This document shows positions 29,725-44,418 of a stretch of 64,000 bases of DNA, piece by piece (position 1 is the stretch's first letter; every line of letters begins with the position of its first letter). Source of the DNA: Pseudorhodoplanes sinuspersici (GTDB lineage: Bacteria > Pseudomonadota > Alphaproteobacteria > Rhizobiales > Xanthobacteraceae); the NCBI RefSeq assembly GCF_002119765.1, contig NZ_CP021112.1, positions 1,420,501-1,484,500 on the forward strand, given 5' to 3'. The notes under the pieces were generated by a model. It was not told the DNA's origin. It worked only from the letters and a program-made list of their open reading frames with translations, and searched no databases. The translations under genes were made by a program, and so were the position numbers.

Positions 29725-30870
29725 TCAGGCACGCATCGCTTCGAAGGCGGTGAAATCCGGATCCTCGTTGTGCTCGCCGAGCGTCGGTGGCGGTCGCATG
29801 TCCACACACCGGGAACCGTCGAAGTAAAGCGGGCTGTTGATTCCGTTGACAGCCCCTTCGACCGGATGAGACAATTCGTAGAATGTCTGAAGGTGCTTCA
29901 CCTGTGAGTCCTGCATCACCTCCGATATTGTTTGAACCGGTGCGAATGGCACATCCGCGCGCTGCAGCCTCTCCTCCCAGCATACGCGATCTTTGCGGAC
30001 AAAAGCGGCCGCAAGCTCGTGCTGCAGATCCAGATAGTTTCGAACACGTGCGTCGCGCTTGCTGAACCGTTCGTCCTCGGCAAGCTCCGGCCGCTCGATC
30101 ACCTCCGTCAGTTTTTTCCAGAACTTGTCGGGCGACGACAGATGAATGGCCAGCAAGGCGCCATCCTTGCAACGAAAGGCATAGGACTGCGAGCTGGCAA
30201 CACGCGTCAGCGGCCCGCTTTCGATACCGAGACGGGTAAAATTGCTGAAGGTGTCCGGTATGAAGGATATCGCCGCCTCCAGCATATTGACTTCAACGCG
30301 ACGGCCTTTGCCGGTCCGCTCACGTTCGTAGAGCGCGCCGAGAATGCCGTAGGCTGCATACATTCCGGTCACGTTATCCGATATCGTCGGCCCGCTCGCC
30401 TGTGGCGCTCCGGGATCGACCATGATGCTGGCGAGACCCGATAAGGCACCGGCGACGGCATCGTAAGCGGGCCGGTCGGCGTAGGGTCCGTCCGCGCCAA
30501 AGCCTGTGATCGAGCACCAGACCAGCCTTGGAAAACTTCGCCGCATCTCGGCGGCATCGAAACCGAGCCGGTCCATGACGCCTTGCCGAAAGTTTTCAAG
30601 CAGCACATCGGCGCCGGACAAAAGCCGGCGCAACGTGGCCTTGCCGTCATCTGTCCGAAGGTCGAGCGTGATACTGCGCTTGTTGCGATTGAACGCGACG
30701 AAGTGCGGACTGTAGAGCCCGCCCCGGAAACTGCGAAACGGGTCGCCGCCATCAGGACGCTCGACCTTGACGACGTCAGCGCCGAGATCGGCGAGCATCA
30801 TGCCGGCGAGCGGCGCAGTGATCATCGTGCCAAGCTCGATGACACGAATGCCTTGCAATATCTTGGTCAC
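29725..30870 (-). CDS. CoA-transferase family III (CaiB/BaiF)
   Basis: A 381-residue family III CoA-transferase, moving CoA between carboxylic acids. LQGIRVIELGTMITAPLAGMMLADLGADVVKVERPDGGD is the typical start (shown here only as IELGTMITAPLAG and LGADVVKVE). The catalytic Asp is expected in the segment NVTGMYAAYGILGALYER, with the preceding SISDNV-type loop. The C-terminal hinge PFAPVQTISEVMQDSQV is also typical. It is the last gene of the operon that starts with the HCHL-like gene at 34711, following the TctC receptor by 15 bases. In this setting it could activate the imported acid to its CoA ester without ATP. Confidence 0.9.
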   Translation of the reverse strand: MTKILQGIRVIELGTMITAPLAGMMLADLGADVVKVERPDGGDPFRSFRGGLYSPHFVAFNRNKRSITLDLRTDDGKATLRRLLSGADVLLENFRQGVMDRLGFDAAEMRRSFPRLVWCSITGFGADGPYADRPAYDAVAGALSGLASIMVDPGAPQASGPTISDNVTGMYAAYGILGALYERERTGKGRRVEVNMLEAAISFIPDTFSNFTRLGIESGPLTRVASSQSYAFRCKDGALLAIHLSSPDKFWKKLTEVIERPELAEDERFSKRDARVRNYLDLQHELAAAFVRKDRVCWEERLQRADVPFAPVQTISEVMQDSQVKHLQTFYELSHPVEGAVNGINSPLYFDGSRCVDMRPPPTLGEHNEDPDFTAFEAMRA

Positions 30871-30885: not shown

Positions 30886-31854
30886 TTATTTGGCGGATCC
30901 GTTCGTCAGCGAAACGATCTTTCTGAACTTCGAAAGATTGTTCTCGAGGAAATCGGCGAATTGCTTTTGTGTGCCCCCGGTGATCTCTGCGCCTGTCGGA
31001 TCGATCTTGGACCGCACGTCCGGTAATTGCAGCGCCTTGTTGACCTCCTGGTTCAGTTTCGAAACGATGGCCGGCGGCGTGCCCTTGGGAGCCGCAAGAC
31101 CATAGAACGTTGTGAAATCGTATTCCGGATAGCCCTGCTCGGCTATGGTCGGAATATCAGGCGCGCTTTTCAAGCGTGTCGTTGACGTGACGGCGATCGC
31201 GCGAAGCTTGCCGGACTTTATGAATTCGTCGGCAACGGCAACGCCAAGGAACATGCCCTTGATCTGCCCTGCGATGACATCCTGCAACGCTGGATTCACA
31301 CCGCGATAGGGCACGACCAGCGCATCCATTTTGCTGATCGCCTTGAGCCACAGAAACCCGATCTCATGAGGACTGCCCGGTCCAAGCGAGCCGAACGTGA
31401 ACCAGCCCGGATGCGCTTTGGCATAGGCGACGAGCTCCGGCAGTGTTTTCATCGGCACCTGCTCGGCATTGACGATCAGAACAAGCGGGACATTGGCCAG
31501 ATGAATGACCGGCACCAGATCCGTCTCCGCCTTGTAGGGCAGCGCCATACCGGACGCGGCGTTGATCGCGAGCGAGTCGAACACCATGCCGACGGTGTAT
31601 CCGTCAGGCTGCGCCTGTGCCAGCGCCGCCGTTCCCGTCACCGTCGATGCGCCGGGCTTGTTTTCCACCACGATCGGCTGACCGAGCGACTTCTCGAGAT
31701 AAACCCCGAGCGTTCGCGCCATCAGGTCTGTTCCGCCGCCCGCCGGATAAGGCACGATCCAGCGAATGGGTTGTGATGGCCATGACTGTGCGACCGCCAG
31801 CGCGGTTGAACTGAGCACAAGCAAAATGGCTAAAGCCGCCGAACGTATTCGCAT
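30886..31854 (-). CDS. tripartite tricarboxylate transporter receptor (TctC/Bug family)
   Basis: A 322-residue periplasmic solute-binding protein. The signal peptide ends near ALAVAQSWP; family blocks are SWPSQPIRWIVPYPAGGG, NKPGASTVTG, AQPDGYTVG and PDIPTIAEQGYPE. It lies between the CoA-transferase and the citrate-synthase-fold gene on the same strand, within the regulated operon, so the ligand is likely the pathway's substrate acid. As with the two other TctC-type receptors here, no TctA/TctB partner is visible. The interval to the gene upstream contains a perfect 22-bp tandem duplication (31878-31921). Confidence 0.9.
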   Translation of the reverse strand: MRIRSAALAILLVLSSTALAVAQSWPSQPIRWIVPYPAGGGTDLMARTLGVYLEKSLGQPIVVENKPGASTVTGTAALAQAQPDGYTVGMVFDSLAINAASGMALPYKAETDLVPVIHLANVPLVLIVNAEQVPMKTLPELVAYAKAHPGWFTFGSLGPGSPHEIGFLWLKAISKMDALVVPYRGVNPALQDVIAGQIKGMFLGVAVADEFIKSGKLRAIAVTSTTRLKSAPDIPTIAEQGYPEYDFTTFYGLAAPKGTPPAIVSKLNQEVNKALQLPDVRSKIDPTGAEITGGTQKQFADFLENNLSKFRKIVSLTNGSAK

Positions 31855-31877: not shown

Positions 31878-31921
31878 TCTCTCCGCCTCATTGCGGGCGT
31901 CTCTCCGCCTCATTGCGGGCG
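31878..31921. repeat. perfect 22-bp tandem duplication
   Basis: Two back-to-back copies of a 22-base unit (TCTCTCCGCCTCATTGCGGG plus CG). The second copy contains the stop codon and last residues of the citrate-synthase-fold gene; the first is the extra copy downstream. It looks like a recent slip-strand event. Confidence 0.85.
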
Positions 31922-32686
31922 GTTATCGAAAACTTCTTTCTCCGCGCGTTCCCAGATTTCCCGCGCCAGCGGATTGCGCATTTCCTCGGCAAGGTGGCCG
32001 ACCAGTCCGACCGCGCGGGAAATGACGGCGATGCCGCGACAGATGCGCCACGGAAATCCCAGTTCGCACAGGATGGCGCCGATGGCTCCTGTCGCATTGA
32101 TGGGGAGCGGGCGGTTGAGTCGCGTTTCCGCTTCCGCGCAGATCGCTTCAAGGAGCGCGATGTAGCGGCCGCGGAAGCCGTTCTGCTCGGCGATGGAAAA
32201 CAGCACTGGCGTGCGCGGATCGATCGGTTTGTGAAGCGGGTGGCCGATGCCTGGAATCGGTTGCTTGCGTCCGACATGCTCGTCGACGATACGCCGTGCG
32301 ATGGCCGGAAGATCCGCGTCCGGCGCCGCATCGCGCAGCCCATCCTGCAGCACCTTGGCGATCTGCTCCGAGCCGCCGGCAAACACACTTCCGACGCCAC
32401 ACAATCCGGCGGCGACGGCCGCCTGCAACGCTTCGGGCGACGCGAGGTAAACCAGCCGCGAGGTCATCGCCTGCGGCGTCATGCCGTGTTCGACCAGTGT
32501 GACCAGCAGCGCGTTGAACACACGCGCCTCCTTGTCCGACGGCATGCGCCCCTGGATCTCCAGAAAGGCCATCGCGCCGAGATCGATCTTACCGAGAAGA
32601 TCGTTGGTGAAATCGCGCTCCTGCACTGTGATGGTGTCGGCGGTGCTCCATCCCATGCGCGATTGCAGCGCTTTGCCTTTCTTCAC
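31910..32686 (-). CDS. citrate-synthase-fold protein (citryl-CoA lyase-like), catalytic residues replaced
   Basis: A 258-residue, short member of the citrate synthase superfamily, annotated in many genomes as citryl-CoA lyase. GIGHPLHKPIDPRTP keeps the His of E. coli GltA His305 (here His149), and ISRAVGLVGHLAEE is conserved. By ungapped hand alignment, however, the GltA His264 position (LHGG) reads Ala103 in FAGGSE, and the catalytic Asp362 (NVDFYSG) reads Thr199 in INATGAIG. It probably catalyses something else or binds a CoA ester. GTG start 32686 overlaps the acyl-CoA dehydrogenase stop, so translation is coupled. It sits inside the CoA-ester operon. Confidence 0.8.
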   Translation of the reverse strand: MKKGKALQSRMGWSTADTITVQERDFTNDLLGKIDLGAMAFLEIQGRMPSDKEARVFNALLVTLVEHGMTPQAMTSRLVYLASPEALQAAVAAGLCGVGSVFAGGSEQIAKVLQDGLRDAAPDADLPAIARRIVDEHVGRKQPIPGIGHPLHKPIDPRTPVLFSIAEQNGFRGRYIALLEAICAEAETRLNRPLPINATGAIGAILCELGFPWRICRGIAVISRAVGLVGHLAEEMRNPLAREIWERAEKEVFDNRPQ

Positions 32687-33855
32687 GATGCCATTCCTCT
32701 CAGCAAGAGTTTTGCGAGCGCCGTTCGGAGGACTTCCGTCGGCCCCTCCGTGATCATGAAGCTGCGCTGATCGCGCCAGAATTTTTCGATCGGTAATTCC
32801 GTGGTCAGGCCGATGCCGCCGTGCAGTTGCAGACAGCGATCGGCGACGCGAAACCCCATCTCGTCTCCGTAGGTCTTGACCATGAAGGTCTCAGCGCGCG
32901 CATCCAGGCCGGCATCGAGCTTCTCGGCCGCATCCCGGACCATCAGTTTCGTGGCATGCAACTCCGTGAAACAGTCGGCCAGAATCCACTGAACGCCCTG
33001 GCGCTCGGCGAGCGGTTCGCCAAACGTACGGCGCTGCTTGGCATAGTCGATGGTCAATTCAAGACAGCGCTCGGCGACACCGCAGGCGCGCGCGCCATGG
33101 CGGATACGGCCTTCGTTGAGCCATTTCTGCGCGAAGGCGAAGCCCTCACCTTCGGCGCCGACCCGGTTCTCTTCCGCAACCTCCACCTCTTCGAAGGAAA
33201 TCTCGCAGGGACGATCGCCCATCATCGTCTGGTGCTGCGCCGATATCTTCAGCCCCGGAGTCTCCATGTCGACGAGGAAACAGGAGATACCGCTCCTTGC
33301 ACCCTTGCCGGGATCGGTGACCGCAAGCACCTGCGCAAAATCCGCCTTCTCCGCATGGGTGATGAAGCGCTTGACGCCATTGAGCACATAATGCGCGCCT
33401 TTGCGCACGGCGCGCGTCCGCATCGATGCAGGATCGGAACCCGCATCCGGTTCGGTCTGCGCGAAGCAGGCGATTTTTTCGCCGGCCAGCACCGGGTCGA
33501 GATAGCGTCGCCTCTGCTCGCCCTGCAGCGACAACAGGATCGGACCAACGAACGGACCGAACAGCGAGTGATCGCGTGCGGGCACAGCAATCGTGCGCGA
33601 TATCTCGTGCCAGAACACGACCATGCCGGACAACCGCAAGCCCTGGCCGCCGAATTCCTCCGGCACATCGAGAAGCCAGAAGCCGGCATCTTGCGCCTTC
33701 TTCTGGATCGCGCGGCGATCCGCCTCCTCCATCGTTTTTCGTTCGAATGGAAGCAGCTCCCGTTCGACGAAACGGCGCAGGTTGCGCCGAAACTCGTCGA
33801 GTTCGGATTGTGATGGAACGGCAACGCTCTCAGCGTTCAATGCAGACGTCAGCAA
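32683..33855 (-). CDS. acyl-CoA dehydrogenase
   Basis: A 390-residue FAD flavoenzyme that desaturates the alpha-beta bond of an acyl-CoA, passing electrons to ETF. The N-terminal helical domain leads to the mid-domain block CFAQTEPDAGSDPASM and the FITHAEKAD strand. The C-terminal QRRTFGEPLAERQ and QLHGGIGLTTELPIEKFWRD are family hallmarks. I take TTG 33855 as the start, since GGGGGAGG is six bases upstream; an ATG at 33912 would overlap the preceding gene. It is the second gene of the operon, between the HCHL-like gene and the citrate-synthase-fold gene. The substrate is probably a branched or aryl acyl-CoA, but that is inference. Confidence 0.92.
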   Translation of the reverse strand: MLTSALNAESVAVPSQSELDEFRRNLRRFVERELLPFERKTMEEADRRAIQKKAQDAGFWLLDVPEEFGGQGLRLSGMVVFWHEISRTIAVPARDHSLFGPFVGPILLSLQGEQRRRYLDPVLAGEKIACFAQTEPDAGSDPASMRTRAVRKGAHYVLNGVKRFITHAEKADFAQVLAVTDPGKGARSGISCFLVDMETPGLKISAQHQTMMGDRPCEISFEEVEVAEENRVGAEGEGFAFAQKWLNEGRIRHGARACGVAERCLELTIDYAKQRRTFGEPLAERQGVQWILADCFTELHATKLMVRDAAEKLDAGLDARAETFMVKTYGDEMGFRVADRCLQLHGGIGLTTELPIEKFWRDQRSFMITEGPTEVLRTALAKLLLRGMAS

Positions 33856-33892
33856 GCCAAACCTCCCCCAGCGGGAACGTTGCGAAGCGGCG

Positions 33893-34711
33893 TTACCGCT
33901 TCTTGCTGCCATGCGCTTCCAGTCCCGGACGATATTCGCCTTTCAGGAAGTCGCCAATGCCTTCGGTCCGCCAGGCATCGCCTTGACGCAGCACAAGCTC
34001 CATCTCCTTGGCCGATGAATAGCTCATCGCCGCTTCCCACGACATTTCGAGCGAGAAGCGATATCCTTCCTTGGTCGCCTTCAGCGCCCATGGATCTTTC
34101 TGTGCGAGCTCTCGCGCAACCGTCATCGTCTCGTTGAGCAGCTCCGCCGCGGGCACCGACTTGTTGATGAAGCCGATCTCGGCTGCGATCTGCCCGCCAA
34201 ACGGGCGGCCCAGCATGCCGTACCAAAGCGCGTCGCGCGGCCGCAGCAGATTGGCCAATGACTTGCTGACGCTGCCGCCGGGAAACAGTTTGAAATTGAT
34301 TTCCGACAGGCCGAATGTCGCCTCATCGGCGGCGATCGCAAGATCGCAACCTTCGACCAGCGAGAACGCTCCACCGAAACAGAAGCCGTTGATCATGGCG
34401 ATCGTCGGCTTGGGATAATAGCGCAAGGTCCGCGTGCGCCACTCCGTCGCGATGCGCCAGATCCGATCATATTCCTGCGGATGCGGCTTGAGGTCGGTGA
34501 AGAACTCCTTGAGATCCATTCCGGCGCAGAAGGCCGAGCCGGCGCCGGTAATGACCAGCACGCGCGCTGCATCGTCGTAGCGCAGATCGTCGAGAAGACG
34601 CACCATCTCCTCGTGCAATTGCGGGCTCATCGCGTTTTTCTTTTCCGGACGGTTGAGCGTAATGGTCGCGATGCCGTCCTTCTTGTCCAGGAGCAGCGTC
34701 TTATAAGTCAT
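33893..34711 (-). CDS. hydroxycinnamoyl-CoA hydratase/lyase-like crotonase
   Basis: A 272-residue crotonase closest in my reading to HCHL (Ech/CouA), which hydrates feruloyl- or p-coumaroyl-CoA and cleaves it to aldehyde plus acetyl-CoA. It shares AGMDLKEFF, PTIAMINGFCFGGAFS, ATFGLSEINF, SVSKSLAN and FGGQIAAEIGF. The catalytic Glu143 of HCHL corresponds to Glu137 here, and Met70/Ser123 equivalents are present, but Tyr75 is Phe70. It could be a hydratase for a related aryl-propenoyl-CoA. First gene of a five-gene operon, divergent from the MarR regulator, with a palindromic site between them. Confidence 0.82.
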   Translation of the reverse strand: MTYKTLLLDKKDGIATITLNRPEKKNAMSPQLHEEMVRLLDDLRYDDAARVLVITGAGSAFCAGMDLKEFFTDLKPHPQEYDRIWRIATEWRTRTLRYYPKPTIAMINGFCFGGAFSLVEGCDLAIAADEATFGLSEINFKLFPGGSVSKSLANLLRPRDALWYGMLGRPFGGQIAAEIGFINKSVPAAELLNETMTVARELAQKDPWALKATKEGYRFSLEMSWEAAMSYSSAKEMELVLRQGDAWRTEGIGDFLKGEYRPGLEAHGSKKR

Positions 34712-34763
34712 CCTTTTCCTCCGCTGAGCGGCGCCGGCTCGGTTTCAAACTGCCGCGCATTTT

Positions 34764-34783
34764 TACTTAGGTTCCTAACTATT
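34764..34783. promoter_or_regulatory. operator candidate A, shared with 38295-38314
   Basis: TACTTAGGTTCCTAACTATT, containing the inverted repeat TTAGG-TT-CCTAA. It lies in the divergent gap between the HCHL-like gene and the MarR gene. Seventeen of 20 bases match the site at 38295. The neighbouring MarR protein is the obvious candidate binder. Confidence 0.65.
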
Positions 34784-34894
34784 ATTAGACCTCCCCGCCG
34801 CCATTGTCGAGAGCAAAGACGAAGCTCGCGCGCGGCGAATTTTTTGCGATCGGCCCGATTGGTGATAATCCTGCGCCGCCTCAGGATTTCATTG

Positions 34895-35464
34895 ATGAAA
34901 AAAACCAAGCCGCTTGCGCCGACCGCCGACGATTCGCCTGTCGACCCCGATTCCGTTTTTGCCTCGAGCACCGGCTACCAGATCCGCAAGACACAACGTA
35001 TGCAGGAGCGCTTCCTGCAGGAGCTGATCGCACCGCACGATATTCAGGTCGGCATGTGGTACTTCCTGCGCGTTCTCTGGTTCGAGGACGAGATCACCCA
35101 ACGCGAATTGAGCCGCCGGGTCGGCGCGTCGGAACCGACGACGCTCGAACAGCTCAAGAAAATGCAGCAACGCGGCCTAATCAACCGTCTGAAAAGCAAG
35201 ACCGATCGGCGGGAACTGCGTGTCGTTCTGACTCCGGAAGGACGCGCTTTGAAAAACGTGCTTTTGAAATACGTCGTCACAGAATCCAATCGCGTTCCGC
35301 TGCGCGGCTTCTCGAAAGCGGAGATCGATCGCTTTCATGACTATCTGCATCGCTTTCGGGAGAATATCCGCGCGGCCCGGTTGGCTTCGGCGCCCAATAC
35401 ATCCAAGACGACTTCGCCCAAGGCGCCTCCAACGAAGGCGCCTCGGAAGGTCAAAACGACCTGA
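34895..35464 (+). CDS. MarR family regulator of the CoA-ester island
   Basis: A 189-residue MarR-type winged-helix protein. After a ~35-residue polar N terminus, the domain runs from TGYQIRKTQRMQERFLQELI; the recognition region is ITQRELSRRVGASEPTTLEQLKK, and the wing is KSKTDRRELRVVLTPEG. A Lys/Pro/Thr-rich tail ends the protein. In this context it resembles CouR/FerC-type repressors that respond to a cinnamoyl-CoA ester. ATG 34895 has AGGA upstream. It is divergent from the HCHL-like operon and 7 bases short of the AMP-ligase gene, which is on the opposite strand and convergent. Confidence 0.88.
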   Translation: MKKTKPLAPTADDSPVDPDSVFASSTGYQIRKTQRMQERFLQELIAPHDIQVGMWYFLRVLWFEDEITQRELSRRVGASEPTTLEQLKKMQQRGLINRLKSKTDRRELRVVLTPEGRALKNVLLKYVVTESNRVPLRGFSKAEIDRFHDYLHRFRENIRAARLASAPNTSKTTSPKAPPTKAPRKVKTT

Positions 35465-35471
35465 CACCGCC

Positions 35472-37025
35472 TCAAGCAACCTGTCTGTTTTGCGCGGACC
35501 AATAGGGCGCTCGCAATGCTTTCTTGTCGATCTTACCATTGAACAGACGCGGCAGCACCTCGACGAATTCCACCGTGCGCGGTTTCTTGTAGCTGGCAAT
35601 GCGCGAGCGGCAATGGGCGATCAATGCTTCCGCGAGCGGTTTCGCGCCCGGCCGCACCACGACGAATGCCTTGACCGATTCTCCCCACTCGTCATCCGGA
35701 ACGCCGATCACCGCGGCCTCCGCGACATCGGGATGCGATCGCAGCGCCTCTTCCACCTCCCAGGAATAGATGTTCTCTCCTCCTGAAATGATCATGTCCT
35801 TCTTGCGATCGACAATGAAGATGAAACGATCCTCGTCGGCATAACCGAGATCGCCCGTATGCATCCATCCGCCGCGCAGGGTCGGAACGGTGGCGGTGTG
35901 GTTATTCCAGTAGCCCGTCATCAAGCCGGGGCTGCGCACCAGAATTTCACCGATCTCGCCCGACTGAGCGTCGTTTCCGTCGGCCGTAACGATGCGCACG
36001 GTGCAGCCAAGAAACGGCTGGCCGGCTGAACTCAGGCGCCGGACCACCCTCTCGTCGCCATCCAGGATATGCTGCGCCGGCGTCAGCAGGCTGACCACAA
36101 TGCACTCGGTCAGGCCGTAGATCTGCGTCAGAATAGGGCCGAACGCAGCGATCGCTCGCCGCAGGACAGGCGCCGGCATCGGTGCCGAAGCATAATGAAT
36201 GCAGCGCAGCCGGTCGCGCCGATAGTTTTGCAAGTCGGGCGATTCCAGCAGCCGTTGCACCATGATCGGCGCAAGATGTGCCGCTGTGACGTTATGCATC
36301 TCGAAGGATCGCAAGATCTCGCTCGCATCGAATGCGGAATGCAGCACCGTCGTCGCGCCGAGAATATTAAAGCCCAGCATTTCGATGCGGCCGCCTATAT
36401 GAAACAGCGGCATGACGATCAGCATGACATCGCTGGTCATCGCTCCGCCATCGTGCGAGATCGATCGCGCCGATTCCGCGATCGCGCGATGGCTCAGCAT
36501 CACCCCTTTGGGCCGCCCGGTCGTCCCGCTGGTGTAAATCAGATAGGCAATGTCCTCGTCATCGATCGCGACGGGAGGCGGCTCGCTTGATGAACCAGCC
36601 AGAACCTCCTCATAAGCCCGCGCGCCGTGCATCGTCGTTTGAATGCCGATGACGGTTTCTATTCCGGCCGCGGCTTTCAGCAACTCTCCGGCAAGCTCGG
36701 CATATTGCTGATGGAAGATCAACGCCTTCGGCTCGCAATCCCGGCAAATCTCGATCAGTTCCTTCGCCGAGAGCCGATAATTGATATTCACAACAATCAG
36801 TCCGGCGCTCTCGCACGCCGCAAAGGCTTCAAGATATTCGGGGCAATTCGGCGCCAAAATCGCGACGCGGTCCTGATGCTTGAGCCCGCTTGCAAGCAGC
36901 GCGTTCCCCAGCCGGCATGCGCGGCTCGTGTAATCACGAAATGTCAGCCCGCGCCCTGCAAAGACAATGGCGTCCTTATCGGGATAGAGCTGCGCATTCC
37001 TGAAGATGATATCGCGGAGATTCAT
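35472..37025 (-). CDS. AMP-forming acyl-CoA synthetase/ligase
   Basis: A 517-residue ANL-superfamily ligase that activates a carboxylic acid with ATP and CoA. It has the P-loop motif YTSGTTGRPKGVML, the A5 motif QIYGLTE, the hinge-adjacent GWMHTGDLGY, and IVDRKKDMIISGG. The final catalytic Lys is in LFNGKIDKKAL. MNLRDIIF at 37025 is the likely start. It follows the ABC substrate-binding protein gene on the same strand with 18 bases between, so the two share the promoter with operator B. Uptake followed by CoA activation fits a phenylpropanoid or other aromatic acid, but medium-chain acids cannot be excluded. Confidence 0.9.
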   Translation of the reverse strand: MNLRDIIFRNAQLYPDKDAIVFAGRGLTFRDYTSRACRLGNALLASGLKHQDRVAILAPNCPEYLEAFAACESAGLIVVNINYRLSAKELIEICRDCEPKALIFHQQYAELAGELLKAAAGIETVIGIQTTMHGARAYEEVLAGSSSEPPPVAIDDEDIAYLIYTSGTTGRPKGVMLSHRAIAESARSISHDGGAMTSDVMLIVMPLFHIGGRIEMLGFNILGATTVLHSAFDASEILRSFEMHNVTAAHLAPIMVQRLLESPDLQNYRRDRLRCIHYASAPMPAPVLRRAIAAFGPILTQIYGLTECIVVSLLTPAQHILDGDERVVRRLSSAGQPFLGCTVRIVTADGNDAQSGEIGEILVRSPGLMTGYWNNHTATVPTLRGGWMHTGDLGYADEDRFIFIVDRKKDMIISGGENIYSWEVEEALRSHPDVAEAAVIGVPDDEWGESVKAFVVVRPGAKPLAEALIAHCRSRIASYKKPRTVEFVEVLPRLFNGKIDKKALRAPYWSAQNRQVA

Positions 37026-37043
37026 TCTGTCGGCTCTCAAATC

Positions 37044-38252
37044 CTAGTGCACCAGCGCGCAACCGCTGTCCTTCAAGGGCAGGAACGACTCTTCGCCGGA
37101 GGTCTTGGAGACGAGTTCATAGTAATCCCACGGCGATTTGGATTTGTCGGGCGATTTGACCCGGAACACGTATTGATCGTGAATCTTGCGGCCATTGGGT
37201 CGGATGTAGCCTTGACCGAACAAAGGATCGTCGGTCTTGAGCTCTTTCATTTTGGCGACGACCTGCCGGCCGTCATCGGGCTTGCCGAGCGCCTTCACCG
37301 CCTTGAGATAATGCAGCACGCCGGCATAGACGCCCGCCTGCATCATCGTCGGCTTGCGCTGATTGTTGCGATCGCCCCATTTCTTCGACCACGCACGCGT
37401 GCCGTCGTTCAGATCCCAATAAAACGTCTCGGTGACGAACAAGCCCTGCGTCGTTTCGAGGCCCAGCGCGTGGATATCGGTGATCATCGTCGACAGGCCG
37501 ACAATGCCCAGCCCCGCTTTATGCAACTGGAATTCTCGTGCCTGCTTGATGGCGTTGGCCGTGTCGGCGCCGCCATTGGCGAGCGCGACCATCTTTGCGC
37601 CGGAGGACTGGGCCTGCAGAAGGAACGAGGAAAAATCGGAGGAGTTGATGGGATGGCGCACGGAGCCGAGCACCTTGCCGCCCTGCTTCAACACCACGGC
37701 CGTCGTTTCGTCGCGCAGATTATAGCCAAAGGTGTAATCAGCGGTGATGAAGAACCATGTCGGATAACCCGCCTTCACCAGCGCTGAGCCGATCGCATAG
37801 GACTGCGACCATGTGTCGTAGGTCCAGTGAATCGTATTGGGTGAACAGGCTTTGCCCGTCAGCGCCGTTGAGCCGCCCGCCGATACGACGATTGCCTTGT
37901 TCTTCTCACGCGCAATCTCGTTGACCGCCAGCGCGACAGCGGAATTGCCGAGATCGACGATCACGTCGACCTTCTCCAGGTCGAACCATCGTCGCGCAAT
38001 ATTGGAGCCGACATCCGGCTTGTTCTGGTGATCCGCCGAGATCACTTCGATCGGCATATCGCCGATCTTGTTGCCGAACTCTTCCGCCGCCATGCGCGCC
38101 GCCAGCACAGAACCGGCGCCGGTGCTATCGGCGAACACGCTGGACTGGTCATTCAACACACCGATCCTGATGACGCCATCGCTGCCAAAAGCCGCGATCG
38201 GAAAAAGCGACAGGTACACGGCGAAAAAGGCCAGCAGCCCTTTCTTCTCCAT
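37044..38252 (-). CDS. ABC transporter substrate-binding protein, branched-chain amino acid/aromatic type
   Basis: A 402-residue periplasmic type I binding protein of the LivJ-like family. The signal peptide is MEKKGLLAFFAVYLSLFPIAAFG, then IRIGVLNDQSS, GAGSVLAARMAAEEFG and the hinge NTIHWTYDTWSQSYAIGSALVK. Such proteins, beyond amino acids, bind aromatic acids including lignin monomers in Rhodopseudomonas-like bacteria. There is no permease or ATPase nearby, so it must dock on a transporter encoded elsewhere. It heads a two-gene operon with the acyl-CoA ligase. The start codon is preceded by GGGAGAG at normal spacing. Confidence 0.9.
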   Translation of the reverse strand: MEKKGLLAFFAVYLSLFPIAAFGSDGVIRIGVLNDQSSVFADSTGAGSVLAARMAAEEFGNKIGDMPIEVISADHQNKPDVGSNIARRWFDLEKVDVIVDLGNSAVALAVNEIAREKNKAIVVSAGGSTALTGKACSPNTIHWTYDTWSQSYAIGSALVKAGYPTWFFITADYTFGYNLRDETTAVVLKQGGKVLGSVRHPINSSDFSSFLLQAQSSGAKMVALANGGADTANAIKQAREFQLHKAGLGIVGLSTMITDIHALGLETTQGLFVTETFYWDLNDGTRAWSKKWGDRNNQRKPTMMQAGVYAGVLHYLKAVKALGKPDDGRQVVAKMKELKTDDPLFGQGYIRPNGRKIHDQYVFRVKSPDKSKSPWDYYELVSKTSGEESFLPLKDSGCALVH

Positions 38253-38294
38253 GGCAACTCTCCCTGGGCATGGCTTTCGTAGCCACTTGTTATA

Positions 38295-38314
38295 TACTTA
38301 GCTCCCTAACCATT
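38295..38314. promoter_or_regulatory. operator candidate B, shared with 34764-34783
   Basis: TACTTAGCTCCCTAACCATT, in the divergent gap between the ABC substrate-binding gene and the enoyl-CoA hydratase gene. It matches operator candidate A at 17 of 20 positions, including both TTAG and CCTAA ends. Confidence 0.65.
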
Positions 38315-38383
38315 GTACGCTTCGCCGGCTGTTTGTCCATAGCCGGGCATCGGCGGAGAACGATCGGATAACGGGATCTGCGG

Positions 38384-39145
38384 ATGGCAGGCACAACCCT
38401 TACGACACAGACGGATGATCGGGGCGTCGCAACCCTCATCTTGAATCGCCCTGAAAAGGCGAACGCGATCGATCGCACGCTGCTGGTCCTGCTACGCGAC
38501 ACATTGCAGGACGTCGCGGCATCCAGTTCGGTGCGCATTGTCGTGTTGCGCGGTGCGGGAAAGCATTTTTGTGCCGGAGCGGATCTCGGCGATCTTCGCA
38601 GCGGCGACACCAAGGCGACCGTGCCGGAATTGTGCGAGGCCCTGGATCGATTGCCCAAGCCGACAATCTGCGTCGTTCACGGCGCCTGTGTTGGCGCCGG
38701 GCTCGCGCTGGCCGCCTGTTGCGATACAGTGATCGCGACGCGGGACGCGCATTTCTCCATTCCGGAAGTCCGTCTCGGCATCGCGCCGGCGCCGCTGATG
38801 CCAGTGATGGTTCGCGCCTGTGGCGAACGCTTCCTGCGCCGTCATCTCTTGAGCGGCGGCCGTTTCGACAGCCTTGAAGCGCATCGCGCGGGGCTCGTTC
38901 ACGAGATCTGCGATTCCTCCGATCTTGAAGGCATGGTCGCGCAATCGATTGACGATTATCTACGGGCGGCTCCCGGCGCGGTGCGGGCCGCGAAGGTGTT
39001 GCTGCAGCCATCATCCCGTATGGATCGAGCTCATTCGAGTCGCGAGCTCGAAGAGATTTTCGAAAAAATGTCGACCTCCCCTGAAGCAAAGGAGGGACTT
39101 GCAAGCTTCAGGGAGCGCCGCTCACCCGCCTGGTACCCCGGTTAG
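38384..39145 (+). CDS. enoyl-CoA hydratase/isomerase family protein
   Basis: A 253-residue crotonase-fold enzyme. LILNRPEKANAIDRTLL, HFCAGADLGDL (oxyanion hole) and VVHGACVGAGLALAACCD are the family motifs. Catalytic Glu appears in FSIPEVRLG. It likely hydrates an enoyl-CoA or isomerises its double bond in the cytoplasm. It is first in a plus-strand operon with the TctC receptor (57 bases on) and the enolase-superfamily gene, and divergent from the ABC binding protein across operator B. It is distinct from the HCHL-like crotonase at 33893, so the pathway may involve two hydration steps. Confidence 0.88.
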   Translation: MAGTTLTTQTDDRGVATLILNRPEKANAIDRTLLVLLRDTLQDVAASSSVRIVVLRGAGKHFCAGADLGDLRSGDTKATVPELCEALDRLPKPTICVVHGACVGAGLALAACCDTVIATRDAHFSIPEVRLGIAPAPLMPVMVRACGERFLRRHLLSGGRFDSLEAHRAGLVHEICDSSDLEGMVAQSIDDYLRAAPGAVRAAKVLLQPSSRMDRAHSSRELEEIFEKMSTSPEAKEGLASFRERRSPAWYPG

Positions 39146-39202: not shown

Positions 39203-40219
39203 ATGACACATCACCATATCTTCGCACGTCAACATGTTGTCCTGAAGCGTCTCATTGTGGGAGCCACATTGTCGTTGCTGACGCTCATTGCAGCGTCAGC
39301 GCTGCCGGCCGCCGCGCAGGACTGGCCGACCCGGCCGATCCAGATTGTCGTTTCATCCGGCGCGGGCGGCACCGCTGATATCCTCGCTCGCCTCATCGCC
39401 GAACAATTGTCGCCGGCGCTCGGACAACCGGTCGTCGTCGAAAACCGTCCCGGCGCCGGCGGGCATGTGGGCGCAGCCGCCGTCGCGCGCGCCAAGCCCG
39501 ACGGCTATACGCTGTTGATGAGCGGCAGCCCGACGCATTCGGTCGGACCGCACATGTTCAAAAATCTGAGCTACGATCCGATGCGCGATGTGCCGCCGGT
39601 GGCGATGATTGCGATCGCACCGAACCTCTTGGTGGTCAATGCATCGCTGCCGGTCAAATCGGTGAAGGAACTGGTTCAATATGCCCGCGAGAAGCCGGGC
39701 CGTCTGACCTATTCATCGGCCGGGCCCGGCACATCCGGCTTTCTCGCCGCCGAACTCCTGAAAAAGAGCGCGGATCTCGATATGGCGCATGTTCCCTACA
39801 AGAGCGGACCGGAAGCCGTCACCGGCGTTCTGTCGGGCGATGTCGGGTTCATCTTCTTCACGCTGCCCTCGCTGCTGCCGCAGGTGGAAGCCGGAAAATT
39901 ACGCGCTCTCGCCATCACCGGCGCAGAGCGCAGCGCGCTGGTGCCGAACGTGCCGACTGTCGCCGAGGCGGGATTCTCTGATTTCGAGGTGCTGGCATGG
40001 TTTGCCCTGTTCGCGCCGCGCGACACGCCGAAGGCGATTGTCGACAAGCTCAGCGCCGAGATCGGGACAATCGTTAACCGGCCGGAGATGCGCGCGAAAA
40101 TGGCGCAACTGGGCGCCGAACCTCGCTACATGAATCCCGAGCAACTCACCAAATTCGTCGCCGCCGAGTCTCCCAAGTGGAAGGATCTGCTGAAAGACTC
40201 CAGCGCGGCCGCAAAGTAA
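39203..40219 (+). CDS. tripartite tricarboxylate transporter receptor (TctC/Bug family)
   Basis: A 338-residue periplasmic receptor. After a His-rich start (MTHHHIFARQHV) comes the signal peptide, ending near LPAAAQDWP. Then DWPTRPIQIVVSSGAGG, NRPGAGGHVG, AKPDGYTLLM and PNVPTVAEAGFSD identify the Bug fold. GAGAGGAAAC precedes the ATG. It is the middle gene between the enoyl-CoA hydratase and the enolase-superfamily gene, so its ligand is likely the pathway substrate. It is the third TctC receptor in the window, again without a TctA or TctB gene. Confidence 0.92.
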   Translation: MTHHHIFARQHVVLKRLIVGATLSLLTLIAASALPAAAQDWPTRPIQIVVSSGAGGTADILARLIAEQLSPALGQPVVVENRPGAGGHVGAAAVARAKPDGYTLLMSGSPTHSVGPHMFKNLSYDPMRDVPPVAMIAIAPNLLVVNASLPVKSVKELVQYAREKPGRLTYSSAGPGTSGFLAAELLKKSADLDMAHVPYKSGPEAVTGVLSGDVGFIFFTLPSLLPQVEAGKLRALAITGAERSALVPNVPTVAEAGFSDFEVLAWFALFAPRDTPKAIVDKLSAEIGTIVNRPEMRAKMAQLGAEPRYMNPEQLTKFVAAESPKWKDLLKDSSAAAK

Positions 40220-40232
40220 ATCCGTCAGCATC

Positions 40233-41324
40233 ATGCGTCTCGCCGATTATTCGCTGCATCCTTACCGGCTGCGATACGCAAGGCCCGTGCAGTGGAGCGA
40301 TGTCGTCGAAGACAGCGCGCCGATGATGCTGCTGCGCCTGATAGCCGACACCGGCGCGGTCGGTGTCGGCGAAATCACGGTGAAGCCGACCTGGTGCGGC
40401 GCGACAGCGCGAAGCCTTGCGGCTTGCATCGAAGAGATGTTCATCCCGCTGCTGCGGACACTCGACCTTGACGACCCGACGCTTGTTCGCGCCGCGCTCG
40501 ACCGCATTCCGGAAAATCTCGCGGCGAAAGCCATCATCGACAATGCCTGCTGGGATCTTGTCGCAGCCCAGCGGGATCAAGCGTTGTGGCGCCTGTGGGG
40601 CGGCGCGCAGGAGATTGAGCTGTCTTGGGCCGTCACCCGGCAACAACCGGCCGTCATGGCGAAGGAAGCCGCGGCAATGGTGTCGCGCTATGGCTTTAAA
40701 ACCTTGAAGGTCAAAGGCGGCCAGGGATTCAGCACGGACCTGCAGGGCATTTCCGAGATTCGCGCAGCGGTCGGTGACGATATCCAGCTCTATGTCGATG
40801 CGAATGGCGCTTACGCGATGGATGAAGCCTTCGATTACGCAAAGGCGCTCGCAGATGCCGGAATAACGTATCTCGAAGATCCCTGCGCTCTCGTTCCGGA
40901 TGCCGCCTTCAAGCAACTCCAGCAAGAAAGCCCGATTCCGCTGCTGGTCGATTTCGGCTGCTGGTCGCCGCGCGATGCCGCGCTGTTCACGGCACAGGGC
41001 GCACAGACGCTGAGTATCAAGCCGGGCCGGTTCGGGCTGTCCTCTTGCCGGCAGATGCAAACCATCGCGCAATCGTCGAACTGCGGTGTGGTCGCCGGCC
41101 TGATGGGGGAAAGCGCACTCGGCACGCTTGCCGCGCTGCAGTTTGCGGCAACAATCCCGAGCCCGGCATTGCCCGCCGAACTAACCTGGTTCCTCGCTAT
41201 GGAAGAGCAGGTGCTGTCAGTGCCGCTTGCGGTGTCTGACGGGAAAATAACGCTGCCTGATTTTGCCGGCCTCGCGTCGCTTGTCGATTGGGCCGCACTG
41301 AAATCCTGCGGCCGCCATGGGTAA
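40233..41324 (+). CDS. enolase superfamily enzyme (mandelate racemase/muconate lactonizing)
   Basis: A 363-residue enolase-superfamily protein that abstracts an alpha-proton from a carboxylate. The N-terminal capping domain is followed by the barrel: Lys159 and Lys161 in TLKVKGG, metal ligands Asp189 in VDANGAY, Glu215 in YLEDPC and Asp240 in LLVDFG, and Lys263 in SIKPGRFG opposite. The KxK plus second Lys arrangement is that of the MLE subgroup (cycloisomerases, dipeptide epimerases, OSBS-like enzymes). It starts 13 bases after the TctC stop, last in the operon. A lactonising or racemising role in aromatic-acid breakdown is plausible but unproven. Confidence 0.88.
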   Translation: MRLADYSLHPYRLRYARPVQWSDVVEDSAPMMLLRLIADTGAVGVGEITVKPTWCGATARSLAACIEEMFIPLLRTLDLDDPTLVRAALDRIPENLAAKAIIDNACWDLVAAQRDQALWRLWGGAQEIELSWAVTRQQPAVMAKEAAAMVSRYGFKTLKVKGGQGFSTDLQGISEIRAAVGDDIQLYVDANGAYAMDEAFDYAKALADAGITYLEDPCALVPDAAFKQLQQESPIPLLVDFGCWSPRDAALFTAQGAQTLSIKPGRFGLSSCRQMQTIAQSSNCGVVAGLMGESALGTLAALQFAATIPSPALPAELTWFLAMEEQVLSVPLAVSDGKITLPDFAGLASLVDWAALKSCGRHG

Positions 41325-42414: not shown

Positions 42415-44418
42415 GTGATTCTGAAACGCATTTCCCTTGCGGCCAGGCTGAATCTGGCCGTTGCCATCCCCGTCGCACTGGCCTTTGCAATTGCCGCCGC
42501 TGCCTTTCTGGGTATTTCCCAGGTTTCACGAGATGCAAGGCTGGCCATCGGCTCCGGCCGAACGCTGCAGGACGCCGCCGAATTGTCGATGATGGCCGAA
42601 CGCATCGGCCGGCTGATCCGGGAGCCCGGCTCACAGCAGGACGTGGCCAAGCGCATCACGCCGGATATCGACCGCCTGCGTCTCCTGGCATCGATGATGG
42701 CGGAAACTGTCAGCCAGCAGGACGCCGCGGCCGCCCGGAAGGTCGCCGCCGATGTCGCAGAACTCGATCAGTTCGTCCTCGGCACCATGCTCGCGCGTGG
42801 CAACATCACCGAAGCCCAGCAGCTCATGCCATCGGCTCTCGCCGCCTTCGCGCAAGCATCGACCCAATTTGCGATCCGGTTGCGAAGCATGCCGGCCGGC
42901 GATGCCGAGGAGCAGACCAACCGGTTCATCCGCAGGGCCGGCGCTGTGATCGAGCAAACGGGGATGTATGCCGGCGCAGCCGATCCGGCGTTATTCGAAG
43001 AAACGCGAAATCACGTCTCAGCCTTCAGCGACCTGATCGATCAGAACATCACAACGCTCAAGGCTGCGGGAACGGATGCGCGCACACTCTCCCGCGACAT
43101 GGAGCGGGCACGGTCGAAACTCTATGGTCTTGTGACCCAGCTCGGCGGCGCTTCGGAACGCTTCGAAAGCCTGCGGCACAAATCCGATGAGACCCTGGCC
43201 CATGCCAGTCAGGCCGCCGCCCTGCTCAAGAGCAACAACAATGCACAATCGAAGCAACGGCTCGACCGTATCGCCGACTGGGCCGAGTTCATCGTCTTCG
43301 GTGCGATCATAGCGCTTGTCGTGGGTCTTGGCCTCGCCATCCTGCTGCCTGTCCTGGTGCGGCGTTCGATCATCCAGCCCTTGTCGCGCCTTGAGGAGGC
43401 GATGAAGCGCCTGGTCCATGGCCATACCGATGTCGTCATTGGCGAAACGGGGCGATCGGATGCGATTGGCGCGATGGCGCGTTCCGTTGTGGTTTTCCGC
43501 GACAGCATTCTCGAACGCGAAAAGCTGCGCAGTGACAAGAAACAGCTCGAGAAAAAATCGGCGCAGCAACGGCGGGACGACATTCAGAAGATTGCCGGCG
43601 AATTCCAGCACGCCGTCGGCAGCATGATCGATACGGTCTCTTCCGCCTCCAACGAACTGGAAGCCGCGGCCGCCTCGCTCACTGCGATCGCCGAACAAAC
43701 GCAAACGCTGTCGGTTTCCGCGTCGAGCAACTTTCAGCAGGCCTCGGCCAATGTGCAGTCGGTCGCCTCCACCACCGACGATCTCGGTCTGTCGATCACG
43801 CAGATCGCGCGCCGGGCGCAGGAATCGAGTGCCATCGCATCGGAAGCGGTACAGCAGGCGCAGATCACCGATTCCTGCATCAATCGGCTGTCGCACTCGG
43901 CCGACCGCATCGGCGATGTCGTGAAGATGATCTCCTCGATCGCCAAGCAGACGAACATGCTGGCGCTGAATGCGACAATCGAAGCGGCGCGGGCCGGACA
44001 AGCGGGACGGGGCTTCGCCGTCGTCGCGCAGGAGGTCAAAACGCTGGCGGCGAATACCGCTACGGCGACCGACGAAATCGGCCGCCAGATTGCCGATATG
44101 CAGACGGCAACACAGGAATCCGTTCACGCCATCAGGGCGATCAATACGACCATTGCCCGCATCGCCGACATCTCGCGTGCCATTTTCGCTTCGGTCGAAC
44201 AGCAGCAAGTGGCAACGGAGGAAATCGCCCGCAACCTGCAGCAGGCGACACACGGCACCAATGCGGTCGCCGGCAGCATTGCCGATGTCAGCCGCGGCGC
44301 GACCGCAACCGATTCCGCGTCGGCCGCCGTCCTTGCGTCGGCGCGGTCGTTGTCCGGCGAAAGCGCAAAGCTGAAGATGGAAGTGGAGCGATTTCTGGCG
44401 ACCGTGCGGGCTGCGTAG
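42415..44418 (+). CDS. methyl-accepting chemotaxis protein
   Basis: A 667-residue chemoreceptor. The first membrane helix is around residues 10-32 ([22 protein letters not shown]), the periplasmic ligand domain is mainly helical to ~residue 285, then the second helix ([23 protein letters not shown]). A HAMP segment ([15 protein letters not shown]) leads into the coiled-coil signalling domain with the hairpin tip [33 protein letters not shown] (core [16 protein letters not shown]). The ligand domain is not a familiar Cache or four-helix type by eye. GTG start 42415 is used; the ribosome-binding site is weak. The gene is alone, no che operon is nearby. Confidence 0.92.

What the first reader, a model, noticed from the sequence alone, without database searches (positions are those of the whole stretch)
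34712..38383. One shared operator defines an island-wide regulon for a CoA-ester pathway
Two divergent promoter regions 3.5 kb apart carry almost the same 20-bp site: TACTTAGGTTCCTAACTATT at 34764 and TACTTAGCTCCCTAACCATT at 38295 (17 of 20 identical, both with TTAG...CTAA ends). The first lies between the HCHL-like operon and a MarR gene; the second between the ABC binding protein/acyl-CoA ligase operon and the enoyl-CoA hydratase/TctC/enolase-family operon. So a single MarR protein probably controls about ten genes. The set of enzymes (ligase, CoA-transferase, acyl-CoA dehydrogenase, two crotonases, HCHL-like lyase, MLE-type enzyme) suggests breakdown of an aryl-propanoid or related acid by a route I do not recognise as described.
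Basis: partly seen in the sequence, partly recalled or inferred. Interest (0 to 1): 0.7.

Follow-up and report, generated by a model that had tools for sequence, protein, structure and literature searches.

The report
MarR-controlled regulon for a CoA-ester pathway
Two matching DNA switches probably let one repressor protein control about eleven genes for taking up and breaking down an organic acid; the switch is a known type that related repressors elsewhere in the same genome also seem to use, and the substrate of the pathway is unknown.

Summary
In detail: two 20-bp sites, 17/20 identical, lie in two divergent gaps 3.5 kb apart and hold the window's only two exact TTAG-N4-CTAA palindromes (0.03 expected). 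Both overlap the last three bases of a -10-like hexamer, as a repressor site might. One MarR controlling eleven genes is the best reading, but inferred.

Two corrections. First, the operator core is not private to this island: TTAG-N4-CTAA is the published SlyA type. In this genome 11 of 15 exact copies lie within 10 kb of four related MarR genes, here and in two Rieske-oxygenase regions. Around 37 relatives of this MarR, 20 regions carry the core, against at most 9 for 11 scrambled half-sites.

Relatives keep the enzyme set without this MarR; in 5 of 6 scanned loci a LysR gene is divergent to the HCHL-like gene, and none holds the core. Verdict: new member of a known kind.

The parts
34764..34783 (.). 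operator site 1, TTAG-N4-CTAA core, between HCHL-like operon and marR
   Evidence: overlaps the last 3 bases of a -10-like hexamer ending at 34781
38295..38314 (.). operator site 2, TTAG-N4-CTAA core, between livK-like/ligase and ech2 operons
   Evidence: overlaps the last 3 bases of a -10-like hexamer ending at 38312
34781..34810 (-). sigma70-like promoter for the HCHL-like operon (TCGACA-18-AATAAT)
   Evidence: consensus match only
38312..38339 (-). sigma70-like promoter for the livK-like/ligase operon (TGGACA-16-TACAAT)
   Evidence: consensus match only
34895..35464 (+). MarR-family regulator, 189 aa
   Evidence: Pfam MarR 1.8e-10; best-scoring relatives are L035, the own paralogue at 459.8 kb and L036, 46-50% identical
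33893..34711 (-). HCHL-like crotonase
   Evidence: NF006588 321 bits, cut-off 276; pocket residues replaced
32683..33912 (-). acyl-CoA dehydrogenase
31910..32686 (-). citryl-CoA-lyase-like protein (citrate-synthase C-terminal domain), Asp replaced by Thr
30886..31854 (-). TctC-type binding protein
29725..30870 (-). family III CoA-transferase (CaiB-like)
37044..38252 (-). ABC-type (LivK-like) substrate-binding protein
   Evidence: Peripla_BP_6 6e-101
35472..37040 (-). acyl-CoA ligase (AMP-binding)
38384..39145 (+). enoyl-CoA hydratase-type crotonase (ech2)
39203..40219 (+). TctC-type binding protein
40233..41324 (+). mandelate racemase/muconate lactonizing (MLE-type) enzyme
   Evidence: nearest solved chain 3dg3, 1.4e-36

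Best explanation
The MarR protein at 34895-35464 is a dimeric repressor that binds the TTAG-N4-CTAA palindrome at both sites. Bound there it sits on the end of the -10 and the presumed start region of the promoters for the HCHL-like operon (5 genes) and the livK-like/ligase operon (2 genes), and probably also shuts the opposite marR gene and the ech2-tctC-MLE operon (3 genes): 11 genes in all. A pathway compound, most likely the imported acid or its CoA ester, releases it. The enzymes import an organic acid, load it with CoA, desaturate it, hydrate it and cleave it; the substrate is unknown. Shown: the sites, their identity, geometry, gene layout, and linkage of the core to related MarR genes. 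Inferred: binding, repression, ligand, pathway order.
For: Two exact palindromes in 64 kb, 0.03 expected. Promoter-like hexamers with the same placement against both 20-mers, same strand. Related MarR genes carry the core: exact within 450 bp upstream for 10 of 38 homologue rows (one gene counted twice), one mismatch for 4 more; within about 6 kb for 20 of 37, against 0 to 9 of 37 for 11 scrambled half-sites and 0 to 3 of 37 for eight other spacers. In the genome 11 of 15 exact copies lie within 10 kb of four MarR paralogues; 0 of 20000 random placements of sites, or of MarR genes, reach it. Without the window: 9 of 13, again 0 and 0.
Against: No binding or expression data. No relative in hand has both this MarR and the livK/ech2 gap, so site 2 has no comparative support. 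Three paralogues seem to use the same core and might bind here. The four paralogues were picked after the search, by score. Other distances are weaker: without the window, random MarR places reach the observed count 36 times of 20000 at 4 kb and 5 of 20000 at 13 kb; with the 447-467 kb cluster counted once, random sites reach it 247 times of 200000. Promoter hits are near background (3 found, 1.4 expected). 17 of 37 MarR homologues have no exact core within 6 kb. The motif-recognition stretch is EPTT in the window and two own paralogues but EPAA in the third (that it is the recognition helix is recalled).
Confidence: 0.72

Rival explanations
1. The sites are part of a wider network: several MarR paralogues with the same core operator bind each other's sites, so the window genes answer to more than one repressor and ligand.
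For: Eight exact cores at 447-467 kb with two MarR genes, one at 1186 kb with a third. One of these, ACTTAGTGTTCTAACCAT at 447653, is 3 mismatches from the window pattern.
Against: The four central bases and flanks differ between regions, and each region carries its own MarR. Nothing tests overlap in binding.
Confidence: 0.3
2. Only site 1 is a MarR operator (autoregulation plus HCHL-like operon); site 2 is a diverged or vestigial copy.
For: The same gap lacks the site in the three distinct loci that have it; the arms of site 2 match over 4 bases, those of site 1 over 5.
Against: 17/20 identity and same position relative to a -10; TTAG/CTAA arms intact.
Confidence: 0.15
3. The pair is a chance or promoter-sequence similarity without a regulator.
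For: Three bases of each 20-mer belong to the -10-like hexamer.
Against: 0 of 100 shuffles reach two sites; link of the core to MarR genes.
Confidence: 0.04
4. Substrate reading: a true hydroxycinnamate pathway, with the HCHL-like enzyme making a hydroxybenzaldehyde.
For: NF006588 above its cut-off; catalytic Glu143 kept in 51 of 51 close rows; 23 of 48 more distant rows also lack the full Tyr75/Trp146/Tyr239 set, so the set is not universal in the wider family.
Against: Tyr239 in 0 of 51, Trp146 in 0 of 51, Tyr75 in 0 of 51 close rows; no aldehyde dehydrogenase among the 20 ORFs scanned around it.
Confidence: 0.15

Closest known systems
SlyA-type MarR operator (TTAGCAAGCTAA; TTA-N6-TAA)
   Same: Same 12-bp palindrome, TTAG-N4-CTAA. 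L085's site, in a marR/HCHL-like gap, is the SlyA consensus letter for letter.
   Different: Here the linked genes are catabolic CoA-ester and Rieske-oxygenase genes; E. coli SlyA was reported to antagonise H-NS at fimB and hlyE (start of abstract of PMC5797941).
CouR/FerC/HcaR MarR repressors of hydroxycinnamate genes
   Same: MarR regulator of a CoA-ester catabolic gene set, one repressor on several promoters (CouR of Rhodococcus, PMC4737184 passages).
   Different: The Rhodococcus CouR box is cATTGA-N5-TCAATg, not TTAG-N4-CTAA; the window MarR matches the chain named CouR, 6c28, only at 8.6e-6; HCHL pocket residues differ. R. palustris CouR and Acinetobacter HcaR papers are not held and FerC's operator was not seen, so these three were not compared.
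DesR and Saro_0803 (MarR repressors of aromatic genes)
   Same: DesR: one MarR with similar inverted repeats at several aromatic promoters (PMC6888825 passages).
   Different: Other operator sequences: GTTTGTGTCACATAC and GCAATA...TATTGC (PMC10046596 passages).
Itaconate/methylsuccinate degradation cluster
   Same: CoA-transferase, acyl-CoA dehydrogenase, hydratase and a C-C lyase in one cluster (PMC12290011 passages).
   Different: The window's lyase candidate is a citrate-synthase-fold protein lacking the usual Asp; the window has extra HCHL-like, MLE-type and ligase genes.

Membership tests
MarR family regulator | MarR winged-helix domain above Pfam cut-off | tested here: met
   PF01047 41 bits, cut-off 24.6
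SlyA-type operator | TTAG-N4-CTAA palindrome in the target promoter region | tested here: met
SlyA-type operator | protein binds it | not testable with these tools
   needs EMSA
SlyA orthologue | NCBIfam SlyA equivalog cut-off | tested here: not met
   42.9 bits against 120
CouR/FerC-type repressor | released by hydroxycinnamoyl-CoA | not testable with these tools
   needs ligand assay
p-hydroxycinnamoyl-CoA hydratase/lyase | NCBIfam equivalog cut-off | tested here: met
   NF006588 321 bits, cut-off 276
p-hydroxycinnamoyl-CoA hydratase/lyase | Tyr that contacts the phenolic OH (Tyr239 by P. fluorescens numbering) | tested here: not met
   Ser in window, Tyr in 0 of 51 close rows. The role comes from docking of the Streptomyces enzyme, Y248, which I equate with 239 from the shared offset of 9 to the catalytic Glu
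p-hydroxycinnamoyl-CoA hydratase/lyase | catalytic Glu143 | tested here: met
citryl-CoA lyase (citrate-synthase fold) | sequence family | tested here: met
   NF004868 335 bits, cut-off 193; 6hxp 9.6e-36
citryl-CoA lyase (citrate-synthase fold) | catalytic Asp at the NVDG position (role recalled) | tested here: not met
   Thr in window; Thr/Ser in 12 of 12 locus rows (two loci counted twice); Thr, Ser or Pro in 30 of 30 rows, the rows for which loci were kept (one is the window, some repeat)

The most novel reading that the evidence does not exclude
A MarR subfamily in this bacterial family has kept one operator core while being copied to several catabolic gene regions, and here regulates, where relatives have a LysR gene, an undescribed catabolic module whose HCHL-like and citryl-CoA-lyase-like enzymes have both changed their active sites and so carry out new C-C bond chemistry.
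Probability: 0.2. Interest if true: 0.65.

Novelty: new member of a known kind. Interest (0 to 1): 0.4.

Why it matters
If true, it gives a clear case to test how paralogous repressors with the same operator core stay insulated in one genome, and how a conserved pathway changes regulator class. It also points to a catabolic module, present in several genera, whose substrate is unknown and whose automatic labels (hydroxycinnamoyl-CoA lyase, citryl-CoA lyase) may mislead.

Tried and rejected
Searching genome contigs with the MarR protein found no relative; the HCHL-like protein was used instead. I looked for the core in the hchl and livK/ech2 gaps of relatives that keep the enzyme set but not this MarR: none has it, nor does any of the nine such loci hold it anywhere. 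I do not count this as refutation, because a LysR gene is there in 5 of 6 scanned; in the sixth, L087, the two genes upstream are transporter genes. L054 does have a MarR homologue (34%), 6 kb from its HCHL-like gene, and no core in the locus. I considered that the window MarR is the orthologue of the MarR beside HCHL-like genes in Defluviicoccus, L084 and L085; rejected, since those lie in a supported clade of 13 rows (99/99) without it. That tree has long branches; its label test set exact-core rows only against one-mismatch rows and found no clustering (155 of 500 shuffles as low). I considered tricarballylate- or methylsuccinate-type substrates for the dehydrogenase/hydratase/lyase set; no test available. 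No structure prediction was run.

Papers: passages only of PMC4737184, PMC7593625, PMC9594313, PMC10046596, PMC10458429, PMC6401476, PMC6888825, PMC5797941, PMC10487757, PMC12290011; others seen only as search listings. PMC3318492 and PMC4933237 are not held.
Full report
Observation. Both 20-bp sites are present at the stated places. They contain the only two exact TTAG-N4-CTAA palindromes of the window, where shuffles give 0.03; after site 2, the next best match to site 1 in the window is 14 of 20. A promoter scan, with no knowledge of the sites, put a sigma70-like promoter on the minus strand at each, with the -10 hexamer overlapping the last three bases of the 20-mer in both cases (hexamer ends 34781 and 38312). 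The scan's total (3) is near its background (1.4), so this is support, not proof.

Genes. Minus strand from site 1: HCHL-like crotonase, acyl-CoA dehydrogenase, citryl-CoA-lyase-like protein, TctC, family III CoA-transferase. Plus strand: marR. Minus strand from site 2: LivK-like binding protein, acyl-CoA ligase. Plus strand from site 2: crotonase, TctC, MLE-type enzyme. That is 11 genes in four units facing the two gaps.

The core goes with a MarR subfamily. In the whole genome exact TTAG-N4-CTAA occurs at 15 places; the pattern read backwards occurs at 64, so the core is not common by composition. Eight of the 15 lie at 447-467 kb, with two MarR paralogues; one at 1186 kb, 2.6 kb from a third; two in the window; one at 3551 kb between a FadB-like gene and a class II aldolase/NMT1 gene row; three elsewhere. 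Neighbours in the 447-467 kb and 1186 kb regions include LigXa-type Rieske oxygenases, reductases, GFO/IDH oxidoreductases and binding proteins, and at 447-467 kb also aldehyde dehydrogenases. Eleven of 15 are within 10 kb of the four best-scoring MarR homologues; none of 20000 random placements, of sites or of MarR genes, reaches this. Leaving out the window it is 9 of 13, again never reached at 10 kb; at 4 kb and 13 kb random MarR places reach the observed count 36 and 5 times of 20000. The four were chosen by score after the search, and the clustered sites are not independent: with that cluster counted once, 247 of 200000 random placements reach the observed value.

Control across genomes. 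Around 37 homologues of the MarR (31-100% identical; loci; two pairs of homologues share a locus, and some loci are shorter than the 12 kb examined), the core occurs within about 6 kb in 20, 26 times in all. Eleven other orders of the same half-site letters give 0 to 9 of 37, and eight other spacers 0 to 3 of 37. 17 of 37 have none. In the seven loci where a MarR gene lies within 300 bp of, and divergent to, a close HCHL-like gene (L068, L070, L072, L073, L075, L084, L085) the gap holds an exact core (7 of 7); five of them are Defluviicoccus.

Known type. TTAGCAAGCTAA is the published SlyA consensus (passages of PMC5797941). Three other MarR repressors of aromatic genes whose operators I could read use different repeats. 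So the operator type is known. I saw no report of its reuse by several catabolic MarR paralogues in the listings, a limited search of open papers.

Module and regulator. The enzyme set is found together, whole in L165 and L166 (same locus as L056), in part in L063, L087 (same as L176), L086, L054, L055 and L059 (same as L167). None has this MarR beside the set, and none holds an exact core. In five of the six whose upstream gene I scanned (L165, L166, L063, L059, L054) a LysR-type gene is divergent to the HCHL-like gene; in L087 the upstream genes are transporter parts. This suggests a change of regulator; its direction is not shown.

Enzymes. I examined the HCHL-like protein in 99 rows (80, 19; several loci fetched twice). 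All 51 rows of at least 59% identity keep Glu143; none has Tyr75 (49 Phe, 2 Val), none has Trp146 (51 Phe) and none has Tyr239. Of the 48 more distant rows 25 have Tyr75, Trp146 and Tyr239 together, 24 of them Acinetobacter, and 23 do not, so the set marks one part of the family, not all of it. In a docking study of a Streptomyces homologue Y248 contacts the phenolic hydroxyl and E152 is the key acid; the offset of 9 fits positions 239 and 143. The roles of Tyr75 and Trp146 are recalled. The citryl-CoA-lyase-like protein has Thr where 6hxp has the Asp of NVDG; 12 of 12 locus rows have Thr or Ser, and 30 of 30 rows of a wider search Thr, Ser or Pro (the matches for which loci were kept; the weaker matches, which may be true lyases, were not examined). 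The role of that Asp is recalled from citrate synthase. Both labels are therefore weak guides to substrate. A search for papers on such a gene set gave one genome paper that is not about it by its title; one search listed related but different clusters.

Verdict. A MarR regulon of about eleven genes with a SlyA-type operator is the likely reading (0.72). It is a new member of a known kind. The more unusual points are the shared operator core among paralogues, the regulator difference between relatives and the module without a described substrate.

Noticed in passing
own genome 447-467 kb (L202, L203): A lower-GC stretch (51-55% in the first 10 kb of L203) with two MarR genes, eight exact TTAG-N4-CTAA sites, a LigXa-type Rieske oxygenase, TPP enzyme, aldehyde dehydrogenases and amidohydrolase: a likely aromatic catabolic region.
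   Followed up: partly
own genome 1186004 (L204): Exact core between a divergent Rieske oxygenase and reductase pair, 2.6 kb from a MarR gene; four relatives (L041, L043, L047, L048) show a core 1.5-2.4 kb upstream of the homologous MarR gene; their gene context was not checked.
   Followed up: partly
own genome 3551151 (L207): An exact core between a FadB-like gene and a class II aldolase/NMT1 gene row; no MarR among the six neighbours scanned: possible distant target.
   Followed up: no
31910-32686: Citrate-synthase-fold protein family with the usual Asp replaced in all 30 rows examined; 51 of 296 genomes of the bacterial family have some match at 1e-20.
   Followed up: partly
42415-44418: Methyl-accepting chemotaxis protein next to the module, perhaps a sensor for its substrate.
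   Followed up: no
L062, L074: MAG records titled Klebsiella pneumoniae and Bordetella parapertussis carry close HCHL-like genes (69% and 66%); the titles may be wrong (bin mislabelling).
   Followed up: no
L087, L054, L164: A MaoC-type hydratase gene sits in these sister modules but was not seen in the window set.
   Followed up: no
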